Below, one piece after another: positions 22,478 through 25,088 of a DNA stretch of 64,000 nucleotides. The notes under the pieces are model-generated. The model was given only the letters and a program-made list of their open reading frames with translations. It searched no databases and was not told the origin of the DNA. Position 1 is the stretch's first letter. Every line of letters begins with the position of its first letter. This DNA is from Alphaproteobacteria bacterium (GTDB lineage: Bacteria > Pseudomonadota > Alphaproteobacteria > Sphingomonadales > Sphingomonadaceae): assembly GCA_019239415.1 (NCBI GenBank), contig JAFAZW010000038.1, positions 1-64,000 on the forward strand. The letters are read 5' to 3'. A program made the translations under genes and the position numbers.

Positions 22478-23641
22478 TCAACGGGGCTGCGGCGTCGTGC
22501 TCCAGGCCAAGACCCAGGGGAGCCCGTGCGCAAACAAAGCGTCCCAGAGTAGCGAACTGTGCCCGGAAACGATCTCATCCATCTTCACTTCCGCCCCCGC
22601 CGCCTGAGCCGAGGCAGCGACCTCGCGGGTACGGGGAAGGAAGAAGCGCTCGAACGTGCCGGCGCCGGCGTAGACCCGCATGCCTTTCAAAGAGGACGCG
22701 TGTTGCGCCGGCCAGGGGCCGCCCGCGACGGACATCGCCACGACGCCTCCAAACACGTCCGGCCGCAGCTCGGCTGCGGAAACCGCCCAGGCCCCGCCGT
22801 TGGAGTAACCGGCAGCGATGTGATCGGCGCTCTTGGACGAAGCTGGATAGTGTCCGATCACGAGAGGGACCACCTCATCGGCGACGAACCGCAGGTGCCG
22901 GTTGAAGAGAGAATCCGGAGCCGACTGATCGTCTCCGGCCGACATCAGATACTCCAGCGCACGTCGGTCGCACATGCCCTTGCAGCCCGGTAGAGTCCCG
23001 CTTGCAGGCGCAATCCCGACGAGAATCGCTCCCGCCGCGCCACTTCCTCGGGCCGCACCCTCGAGCAGCCCAGCGAAGCGCTCGGTCTCTCCGTCGGTAA
23101 GGAAGATGACAGGGAGGCGGGCGCCCGGCGGGACAGCCGCTGGGACGTAGACCTGTATTTCCCGCGCTTGGCCGAGATTGGAAGAGCGGATGACATGGCG
23201 CGTGATTGTGCCCCGCAACGTCGTGGCTCGCGGGGGCGGCATGGGGGCTGACGGGGTCGGTACTCGCTCGACCGGATATGCTGTTTCCGAGGCTATCATC
23301 CCTGCGTCGAGCAGGGCCTCGTCCACGCGTGGGATGCGCACCGTGATGGCACCCATACCCGAATCGCCGATCGGCTCGAGTGGCGTTTGAAGCGCGCAGC
23401 AGAGCAGCCCCCATCTCTCGGGGCCGAACCGAGCCACGAGCGTGAGACGATCGCCACTAAGCCACCGGACTTGCTCTCGACCCTGGAGGAGTCGATCGAT
23501 GGCGGCTCGGGAGAGATGGGTCCGAACCGTGCACGGGGCGATCACCTCCGCAGTCTCACTCTCGCACCGCGGCAGCGGCAGGAAACTGGCGGGGGGTTGT
23601 GCCGCCGCTGTCAGGAAGAAGCTGAAAAGGCCGATTATCAC
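22478..23641 (-). CDS. Secreted alpha/beta-hydrolase esterase (Fes/esterase D-like), GTG start
   Basis: Signal peptide (V)IIGLFSFFLTAAAQ; REIQVYVPAAVPPGARLPVIFLTDGE...AAGYSNGGAW nucleophile motif...VSGHSSLLW; GGAGGGCG ribosome site; 49 bp after the ATP-grasp stop. Trimmed from ORF 22478-24106. Confidence 0.8.
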   Translation of the reverse strand: MIIGLFSFFLTAAAQPPASFLPLPRCESETAEVIAPCTVRTHLSRAAIDRLLQGREQVRWLSGDRLTLVARFGPERWGLLCCALQTPLEPIGDSGMGAITVRIPRVDEALLDAGMIASETAYPVERVPTPSAPMPPPRATTLRGTITRHVIRSSNLGQAREIQVYVPAAVPPGARLPVIFLTDGETERFAGLLEGAARGSGAAGAILVGIAPASGTLPGCKGMCDRRALEYLMSAGDDQSAPDSLFNRHLRFVADEVVPLVIGHYPASSKSADHIAAGYSNGGAWAVSAAELRPDVFGGVVAMSVAGGPWPAQHASSLKGMRVYAGAGTFERFFLPRTREVAASAQAAGAEVKMDEIVSGHSSLLWDALFAHGLPWVLAWSTTPQPR

Positions 23642-23690
23642 CGCGGATCCGCCCTCCGCGTCCTGCCAACCCGAAGGGGAATCGAAAGCA

Positions 23691-24821
23691 TCAGTCGCTG
23701 AAGACCGCGCTCGACCGGGGCTCGACATGCCGATCCCGCTGATGGTCGATGTACGGACGAATGTGGCTCCCGAAGCTCCCCGCATAGCCGGCTGCGTGGA
23801 TTCGTTCCGCCGGCGGAGGGGCCTCGTACAGGAAGCGTGGATCGCGCGAGCAGAGGAAACGGGCGAAACAATCCAGAAGCGGAATTTCGGGATTGCAGCT
23901 CTCGATCCACAGCCAGTTTCCCATCTCGTTGGCTTCGAGGAACACCCACGCTCCGTCTGGAGTAACGATGAAATCCACGGTCGAGAAGATGATGCCGAGC
24001 CGGCTGTGAAATGCCAGAAGCTTCTCGGCAACCACTTCCGGCAGGTCGATGCGCCGGTGCCCGAGGTCGCGCCAATCGCGCACCTTCCTGAAGTCGACCT
24101 CCGCATCTCGGGCCGATTGCGATTCGAGCTTCACCGCCATCATTGTGTGGCCCATGATCGTGACGCGCACCTCGTAGCTCTTCGCCAGGCACTTCTGGAA
24201 TATCACGGGGTCGGAGCTCACATCGGCGGCGAGGACGTCCGCTTCGGTGACCAGTTCGGTCATGAAGCCGAAGTCGCTGGCCGCCGCGTCCCGCCACATG
24301 ACTGCCGCGAGCGGCTTGGCGATCGTCTCGGCGCCTTGCTTAGCATTCGTTCGGATGAACGCGCCGATCTCTTCCGCCGATGTGGAAATCAGCGTGGGCG
24401 GGACGATCAGGCCGCATTCGATCGCCACTTGCAGCTGGAGCGGCTTCAGATTTCGCGCGGCCTCCGACGCCGGGGGGTTGACGCAAAAGCGGCCGTGTCG
24501 TCCGAGCGCCTGCTGGATGGAGGAGGAGATCAGCCGCCAGTCACGAACCGCAACCTGCAGGTCGCTCTCGTGGATAGAGGGTGAAGGGACCGGTCCGACC
24601 ATGCGGCGGAACCACACGATGTCGTAGTCGAAGAGGTTGAAGCTCCGATCCCCTTGAGAAACTCTGCAGTCCATGTCCGCACCCGCCCGGAACGAGAGGG
24701 CTGAGAGCTGGGGGACATCCGACAGGAACAGCACATCGACGTCGAGCCCGAGGCGCTCGAGCGCCCATTTGACGGCAAAGGTGTGAAAGTCCGCCGGCTG
24801 TGAAAATGCCAACAACCTCAT
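23691..24821 (-). CDS. MvdC/MvdD-like ATP-grasp RiPP maturase (complete)
   Basis: MRLLAFSQPADFHTFAVKWALERLGLDVDVLFLSDVPQ...DIVWFRRM...DFIVTPDGAWVFLEANEMGNWLWIE. Confidence 0.82.
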   Translation of the reverse strand: MRLLAFSQPADFHTFAVKWALERLGLDVDVLFLSDVPQLSALSFRAGADMDCRVSQGDRSFNLFDYDIVWFRRMVGPVPSPSIHESDLQVAVRDWRLISSSIQQALGRHGRFCVNPPASEAARNLKPLQLQVAIECGLIVPPTLISTSAEEIGAFIRTNAKQGAETIAKPLAAVMWRDAAASDFGFMTELVTEADVLAADVSSDPVIFQKCLAKSYEVRVTIMGHTMMAVKLESQSARDAEVDFRKVRDWRDLGHRRIDLPEVVAEKLLAFHSRLGIIFSTVDFIVTPDGAWVFLEANEMGNWLWIESCNPEIPLLDCFARFLCSRDPRFLYEAPPPAERIHAAGYAGSFGSHIRPYIDHQRDRHVEPRSSAVFSD

Positions 24822-24914
24822 GGAATTTGCCCGGACGGGTGGTCTCGCGCTAAGTCGCAGCACATATGACGACACTAGGCGGGGAGGCGGCGCGGGGCCG
24901 CCCCCCGCAGAAGA

Positions 24915-25088
24915 TCAGTCCAGGACCGTATCGGAGGTCCGGCGGTCGCCGGTGATCTCGGTATAGGAGGTCGTCGGAGAAATCATGCTCTCCCCCTCGT
25001 AGCCGCCGGCCACAAGGCCCTGCTCCTCCGGCGTCAGCTCCTTCGCCAGGTGGCGGCCGATCACACGCTTCGCGCTCTGCTGCATCAT
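24915..25088 (-). CDS. Putative RiPP precursor peptide B (57 aa), absent from ORF track
   Basis: MMQQSAKRVIGRHLAKELTPEEQGLVAGGYEGESMISPTTSYTEITGDRRTSDTVLD; AAAGGAC ribosome site; immediately 5' of the ATP-grasp. Confidence 0.72.
   Translation of the reverse strand: MMQQSAKRVIGRHLAKELTPEEQGLVAGGYEGESMISPTTSYTEITGDRRTSDTVLD

What the first reader, a model, noticed from the sequence alone, without database searches (positions are those of the whole stretch)
22478..25088. Complete three-gene candidate graspetide operon: precursor, ATP-grasp ligase, Fes-like esterase
Seen: on the minus strand a 57-aa peptide (24915-25088), an ATP-grasp enzyme with the microviridin-maturase motifs IWFRR and FLExNEMGN (23691-24821), and a signal-peptide-bearing esterase (22478-23641) form a tight co-directional unit. 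Established: MvdC/MvdD-type ATP-grasp enzymes install ester or amide side-chain crosslinks on leader-bearing precursors (graspetides). Inference: the core SMISPTTSYTEITGDRRTSDTVLD is rich in Thr/Ser donors and Asp/Glu acceptors, as a graspetide would require. The precursor is too short for the ORF track, so routine annotation would probably miss it.
Basis: partly seen in the sequence, partly recalled or inferred. Interest (0 to 1): 0.9.

Follow-up and report, generated by a model that had tools for sequence, protein, structure and literature searches.

The report
Sphingomonad graspetide operon, plus a second
The window holds genes for a small peptide and the enzyme predicted to tie its side chains into rings (a graspetide), together with an exported esterase of unknown role; this is a new example of a well-known natural-product class, not a new kind of system.

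Summary
Three co-directional genes lie at the stated coordinates: a 57-aa peptide, a 376-aa ATP-grasp enzyme and a PF00756 esterase. The enzyme's closest solved relative by sequence and by predicted fold is the microviridin cyclase MdnC. A leader profile trained only on other genomes finds the 57-aa ORF in the six-frame window at 32.9 bits (E 5e-9; shuffled windows reach 10.8 at most). It finds one other ORF equally well: a second precursor at 967-1149, beside a second, contig-cut ATP-grasp gene. In leave-one-out tests on 83 ATP-grasp loci, 24 carry the leader next to the enzyme and none elsewhere. The leader follows one supported enzyme clade, mostly of proteobacteria.

The esterase has a Fes-like fold and intact catalytic motifs. 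In four Sphingomonas genomes its homologues are not near graspetide genes, and no other graspetide locus examined carries it. Its role in the operon is inferred from gene arrangement only. No leader protease or exporter is linked ("complete" is too strong), and the small ORF is already in predicted-protein collections.

Verdict: new member of a known kind. Most interesting open idea: the esterase reopens the predicted ester rings.

The parts
24915..25088 (-). Graspetide precursor A, 57 aa: leader MMQQSAKRVIGRHLAKELTPEEQGLVAGG, core YEGESMISPTTSYTEITGDRRTSDTVLD (6 Thr, 4 Ser, 3 Glu, 3 Asp, no Lys)
   Evidence: ORF; leader profile from other genomes 32.9 bits, E 4.8e-9; core composition
25047..25067 (-). 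Leader recognition motif RVIGRHL, residues 8-14; shares hydrophobic-hydrophobic-[AG]-R-x-L with microviridin PFFARFL
   Evidence: Conserved R-[VI]-[LIMF]-[AG]-R-x-[LV] in leaders beside related enzymes; PFFARFL quoted in PMC8939145
25002..25007 (-). GG cleavage motif, residues 28-29 (VAGG), predicted leader/core border
   Evidence: Invariant GG in the leader family; C39 peptidase-ABC transporters linked in Legionella and in genome G112
24879..24908 (-). G+C-rich hairpin between precursor and enzyme gene, possible attenuator, no T run
   Evidence: Fold -41.2 kcal/mol for the 96-nt spacer, z -2.1
23691..24821 (-). Graspetide synthetase A (ATP-grasp, 376 aa, with a C-terminal extension of about 45 aa containing a long helix)
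   Evidence: TIGR04187 164.6 bits, MvdD 133.3, MvdC 123.3; MdnC 5ig9 E 7e-62; fold search, top hit MdnC
22478..23641 (-). Predicted exported PF00756 esterase, 387 aa, Fes-like two-domain fold, GYSNG nucleophile (Ser280), His361
   Evidence: Pfam 9.8e-15; family alignment; fold search, top hit Fes 3c8d E 2.1e-16
967..1149 (-). Second graspetide precursor B, 60 aa: MKDRIIGRRLARPLTEAEIECVAGG / DDGNPGPPIDTAVRTNVSPQGDWEKQPDPRTMGGE
   Evidence: Leader profile 33.3 bits, E 3.5e-9
927..951 (-). Terminator-like hairpin with T7 tail between precursor B and enzyme B, likely attenuator
   Evidence: z -3.9
1..912 (-). Graspetide synthetase B, 39% identical to A, cut by the contig end; continuation inferred on contig C74:1-180
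25270..25610 (+). Truncated second copy of the guaD 3' end, 96% identical to 22001-22339; flanks cassette A
25651..25726 (-). tRNA-Thr (TGT) next to the duplicated guaD fragment

Best explanation
This is a graspetide (ester- or amide-crosslinked RiPP) operon. The 57-aa precursor binds the ATP-grasp synthetase through a leader helix carrying RVIGRHL, which occupies the place of microviridin PFFARFL. The enzyme phosphorylates Asp/Glu side chains of the core and lets Thr/Ser hydroxyls attack; with no Lys in the core, only macrolactones are expected, each costing 18 Da. A C39-type peptidase then cuts after VAGG, here probably supplied in trans, and the 28-residue core is exported. The exported Fes-like esterase is the operon's variable third gene; my preferred guess is that it acts on the ester rings (protection or turnover), but only its place in the operon supports that. 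Shown: gene order, leader conservation beside the enzyme clade, synthetase family and fold, esterase fold. Inferred: ring formation, leader cleavage, export, esterase substrate. The confidence given is for the graspetide precursor/synthetase reading, not for the esterase's role.
For: Enzyme: MvdD/MvdC/TIGR04187 matches, MdnC/MdnB/CdnC/PruB/PsnB by sequence and by predicted fold (pLDDT 84; TM 0.74-0.90 to MdnC, RimK and ArgX weaker). Precursor: independent leader profile E 4.8e-9, shuffles at most 10.8 bits; leave-one-out 24 of 83 loci positive near the enzyme, 0 elsewhere; 26 of 27 leader-positive enzymes lie on one side of a 96/99 branch, and window A, window B, Sphingorhabdus and the nearest database enzymes form a 100/97 clade. 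A second operon of the same clade lies in the same window. Linked C39-ABC exporters in relatives and the C39 proteins elsewhere in this genome fit GG cleavage. Attenuator-like hairpins lie between precursor and enzyme.
Against: No mass-spectrometry or binding data. Core A matches neither core B nor the Sphingorhabdus core beyond shuffles (921 and 547 of 2000 shuffles score as high), although cores B and Sphingorhabdus match each other (3 of 2000); donor and acceptor pairing cannot be predicted. Enzyme scores lie below the NCBIfam cut-offs for MvdC, MvdD and TIGR04187. No linked protease or exporter. Esterase homologues elsewhere are not linked to graspetide genes.
Confidence: 0.88

Rival explanations
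1. Precursor and synthetase are a genuine two-gene graspetide unit, but the esterase is a bystander: a general exported sphingomonad esterase that happens to follow in the same cassette.
For: Homologues in four Sphingomonas-like genomes lie beside lepA, hisS and other unrelated genes, with no ATP-grasp or leader match nearby. No other graspetide locus fetched encodes a close relative.
Against: 49-nt gap, same strand, its own ribosome-binding site, no terminator before it; it lies inside the same guaD-flanked cassette. Other sphingomonad operons also carry a third gene, mostly with a predicted signal peptide. Contexts of the 52-62% identical esterases could not be read.
Confidence: 0.5
2. The ATP-grasp enzyme performs another ligation on the peptide (for example RimK-like residue addition) rather than side-chain macrocyclisation.
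For: ATP-grasp enzymes are diverse; C-terminal extension of about 45 aa beyond MdnC; NCBIfam cut-offs not reached.
Against: Graspetide synthetases exceed RimK/ArgX by many orders of magnitude in both sequence and fold searches; Thr/Ser/Asp/Glu-rich core; leader of [AG]-R-x-L type.
Confidence: 0.07
3. The small ORF is spurious and the real precursor lies elsewhere, or the operon is decayed.
For: The ORF is short and its core has no detectable homologue.
Against: Independent leader profile E 4.8e-9; conserved placement beside the enzyme in 24 of 83 loci; open frames and conserved ATP-grasp residues; ribosome-binding site.
Confidence: 0.03

Closest known systems
Microviridins and MdnB/MdnC-type graspetides (group 1)
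   Same: Same ATP-grasp synthetase fold; MdnC is the nearest solved structure. Leader helix motif shares hydrophobic-hydrophobic-[AG]-R-x-L with PFFARFL.
   Different: RVIGRHL replaces PFFARFL, the leader ends in GG, the core lacks Lys and the microviridin core pattern (recalled TxKxPSD), and one synthetase is present instead of two.
Proteobacterial GG-leader graspetide loci with C39-ABC exporters (Legionella adelaidensis plasmid, L030; genome G112, L113); possibly overlapping Makarova branch 3 (Xanthomonas, Lysobacter)
   Same: The Legionella leaders match the family (R-V-[LM]-A-Y-Q-L-A...IAGG), the ATP-grasp lies in the same clade and the precursor upstream; G112 shares the VAGG end.
   Different: Those loci carry HlyD and a C39 peptidase-ABC transporter; the window operon has neither and carries an esterase instead.
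Sphingorhabdus contaminans graspetide-like locus (L033)
   Same: Closest enzyme clade with a readable neighbourhood (39% identity), leader SQRIITRSLAVELN...VSGG, three-gene layout.
   Different: Third gene is an unrelated 319-aa predicted secreted protein between precursor and enzyme; its core resembles core B, not core A.
Enterobactin esterase Fes / CE1 feruloyl esterases (PF00756)
   Same: Two-domain fold, GxSxG nucleophile and catalytic His; Fes opens a cyclic trilactone.
   Different: About 15% identity, predicted exported rather than cytosolic, no siderophore genes recognised beside it, well below the NCBIfam Fes cut-off (42 vs 222 bits).
Lasso-peptide isopeptidases of sphingomonads (from general knowledge)
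   Same: Would be a functional parallel: a hydrolase in the RiPP operon that reopens the macrocycle.
   Different: Different RiPP class and bond; no evidence here that the esterase acts on the peptide.

Membership tests
Graspetides | Graspetide-type ATP-grasp ligase | tested here: met
Graspetides | Short leader-bearing precursor encoded beside the ligase, leader conserved with the ligase clade | tested here: met
Graspetides | Core with Ser/Thr/Lys donors and Asp/Glu acceptors | tested here: met
   10 Ser/Thr and 6 Asp/Glu in 28 residues, no Lys; composition only, pairing unknown
Graspetides | Side-chain ester or amide crosslinks (loss of n x 18 Da) | not testable with these tools
   needs co-expression and MS
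Graspetides | Assignment to one of the published groups (43 in PMC13097080) | not tested
   group alignments and network not held; the 2021 grouping paper is not in the library
Microviridins (group 1) | PFFARFL leader | tested here: not met
   RVIGRHL instead
Microviridins (group 1) | MvdC plus MvdD pair above curated cut-offs | tested here: not met
   one enzyme; MvdD 133.3 and MvdC 123.3 bits vs cut-offs 475 and 425
Enterochelin esterase Fes | NCBIfam PRK10439 equivalog score | tested here: not met
   42.1 bits vs cut-off 222
Enterochelin esterase Fes | Two-domain Fes fold with alpha/beta-hydrolase catalytic residues | tested here: met
Esterase as a conserved graspetide tailoring, immunity or release gene | Recurrent linkage to graspetide loci | tested here: not met
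   absent from all other loci fetched; four distant homologues unlinked; contexts of the closest homologues unreadable

The most novel reading that the evidence does not exclude
The exported Fes-like esterase is a dedicated graspetide macrolactone hydrolase that reopens the ester rings of its own peptide in the periplasm, giving self-protection, turnover or release. It would be the ester counterpart of the lasso-peptide isopeptidases, and in sphingomonads the third gene of each graspetide operon would be a swappable module matched to its peptide.
Probability: 0.2. Interest if true: 0.65.

Novelty: new member of a known kind. Interest (0 to 1): 0.33.

Why it matters
It adds two well-supported graspetide operons (and a weaker third) in one sphingomonad genome, with a leader signature that can be used to find many more precursors in proteobacteria. 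If the esterase acts on the product, it would be a dedicated ring-opening enzyme for graspetides and a handle on their self-immunity or release, which is poorly understood.

Tried and rejected
Single-protein scan of genome contigs with enzyme A: nothing confirmed; an alignment was needed. Precursor search by shared words: only itself, because the core is unique and words are short. Pfam on precursor and enzyme: no family. Core A versus other cores: no similarity above shuffles, so I dropped my first idea of a shared T..T..GD..D core for A (the notebook entry); it holds only for B and Sphingorhabdus. Esterase conservation with graspetide loci: searched the fetched loci by tblastn (weak hit only in L082, E 0.005, an ordinary alpha/beta hydrolase), 72,556 plasmids and about 700 genomes of the family; no linked copy. 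Locus C11 ATP-grasp (L008): paired with a 240-aa protein, no precursor seen, not pursued as graspetide. Sigma-70 promoter scan: nothing, uninformative.

Full report
Observation. The three ORFs exist at the stated coordinates, on the same strand, with gaps of about 93 and 49 nt. The precursor has a good ribosome-binding site (AAAGGA shortly before ATG 25088) and the esterase a GGAGGG before its GTG. The ATP-grasp start at 24821 agrees with homologues. The motif quoted as IWFRR reads VWFRR here; FLEANEMGN is as stated.

The enzyme. NCBIfam gives TIGR04187 (164.6 bits), MvdD (133.3), MvdC (123.3) and grasp-with-spasm (84.4), all below their curated cut-offs but far above RimK (13.8). A profile of ten relatives matches in the PDB only graspetide synthetases: MdnC 5ig9 (7e-62), MdnB 5ig8, AMdnB 7m4s, CdnC 7mgv, 9bou (PruB, as named) and PsnB 7drm. 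The AlphaFold model (pLDDT 84) has MdnC as best Foldseek match (E 6e-26, TM 0.74/0.89); RimK and ArgX come at about 1e-13. A C-terminal extension with a long helix (343-365) goes beyond the canonical fold.

The precursor. The direct database search found only the peptide itself, so I read the neighbourhoods of related enzymes. A leader of the form R-[VI]-[LIMF]-[AG]-R-x-[LV]-[AS]...LT..E...V[AS]GG recurs beside ATP-grasp genes of Legionella, Bradyrhizobium, Anaeromyxobacter, Xanthomonas, Stenotrophomonas, Tahibacter, Rubrivivax and others. A profile of 19 such leaders, none from this genome, was run on all frames of the window and other own-genome stretches: the two best of 2392 frames are precursor A (32.9 bits, E 4.8e-9) and an ORF not mentioned in the finding, at 967-1149 (33.3 bits, E 3.5e-9); 20 codon-shuffled windows reach 5.6-10.8 bits. 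In leave-one-out searches over 83 loci, 24 have a hit of at least 12 bits next to the enzyme and none has one elsewhere. A 92-enzyme tree puts 26 of 27 leader-positive enzymes on one side of a branch with support 96/99, and groups window A, window B, the Sphingorhabdus enzyme and P0002-P0006 at 100/97. The leader therefore tracks an enzyme clade, as Makarova et al. describe for other graspetides (PMC8939145). RVIGRHL lines up with the microviridin PFFARFL as hydrophobic-hydrophobic-[AG]-R-x-L; I infer the same helix contact.

Second and third operons. Precursor B is followed by a strong terminator-like hairpin (951-927, z -3.9) and ATP-grasp B (39% identical to A), which runs off the contig and very probably continues on C74 (LWVEANNPEIPLLDCF...). 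Precursor A is followed by a stable hairpin without a T run. Such hairpins would favour precursor over enzyme; this is inference. A third locus on contig C48 has a weaker leader match (9.8 bits), an ATP-grasp in another clade and a DUF6624 protein; DUF6624 is reported as frequent in graspetide groups 18, 20, 23 and 42 (PMC13097080).

The esterase. PF00756 (9.8e-15), with nucleophile motif GYSNG (Ser280) and His361; relatives show N-terminal signal sequences. The model (pLDDT 88) has the enterobactin esterase Fes as best PDB match over both domains (E 2e-16, TM 0.60), then CE1 feruloyl esterases. Whether it belongs functionally is open. Distant homologues (about 43% identity for the one aligned pairwise) in four genomes of one related genus lie beside lepA, hisS and other unrelated genes, with no ATP-grasp or leader match within the 13-14 kb stretches read; one is broken. 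The closest relatives (52-62%) are on metagenome contigs I could not read. Other sphingomonad loci have different third genes: 223 aa, DUF6624, 319 aa and 326 aa, of which at least those in C48, L033 and L114 begin with signal-peptide-like sequence.

Maturation. Relatives with the same leader or the same VAGG ending carry HlyD plus C39 peptidase-ABC exporters (Legionella, G112). The window operon has none, but the genome has five C39 matches; two of those looked at lie beside a lasso-cyclase-like asparagine synthetase homologue and a radical SAM maturase (labels from reading the sequences). Cleavage after VAGG in trans is inferred.

Mobility. Cassette A lies between guaD and a truncated, 96% identical copy of the guaD 3' end next to tRNA-Thr. 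The guaD stretches read from four relatives each match that part of guaD at one place, and their synteny with the window ends there. Cassette G+C is 64% against 70% for the window. Acquisition by horizontal transfer is likely but not proven.

Novelty. More than 20,000 graspetides are predicted (PMC13097080); this is a further member. The core of A is unassigned: it lacks Lys, so only ester rings are expected, and their pairing cannot be predicted. The esterase is the one unusual part.

Noticed in passing
window 1-1149 minus: A second graspetide operon (precursor B, terminator-like hairpin, ATP-grasp B cut by the contig end); moeA-like gene upstream.
   Followed up: yes
L006 5093-7047 (own genome, contig C48): Third, more distant graspetide-like locus: small VAGG peptide, 330-aa ATP-grasp, secreted DUF6624 protein.
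   Followed up: partly
window 22001-22339 and 25270-25610, tRNA-Thr 25651-25726: guaD 3' end duplicated (96%) on both sides of the graspetide cassette, next to a tRNA: footprint of an insertion or recombination event.
   Followed up: partly
L124 and L125 (own genome, contigs C32 and C54): C39 peptidase-ABC transporters beside an asparagine-synthetase-like (lasso cyclase-like) gene and beside a radical SAM maturase-like gene: further RiPP clusters in the same genome.
   Followed up: no
L030 2828-5658: Legionella adelaidensis plasmid with three tandem graspetide-like precursors, one ATP-grasp, a secreted 348-aa protein and a C39 exporter.
   Followed up: partly
L027 and L028 upstream of the ATP-grasp: ATP-grasp genes preceded by 76-113 aa ORFs with signal-peptide-like stretches and Asp/Ser-rich tails (DSDSDSDQQGDC), an unusual precursor type.
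   Followed up: no
L011, L016, L019: Sphingomonad ATP-grasp loci with repeated T-K-T...E-x-DD style multi-core precursors.
   Followed up: no
L033 2758-2940 and window 967-1149: Cores of Sphingorhabdus and precursor B resemble each other (TVPTNTGPNGDSERQFD / AVRTNVSPQGDWEKQPD, 3 of 2000 shuffles), a candidate shared core pattern.
   Followed up: partly
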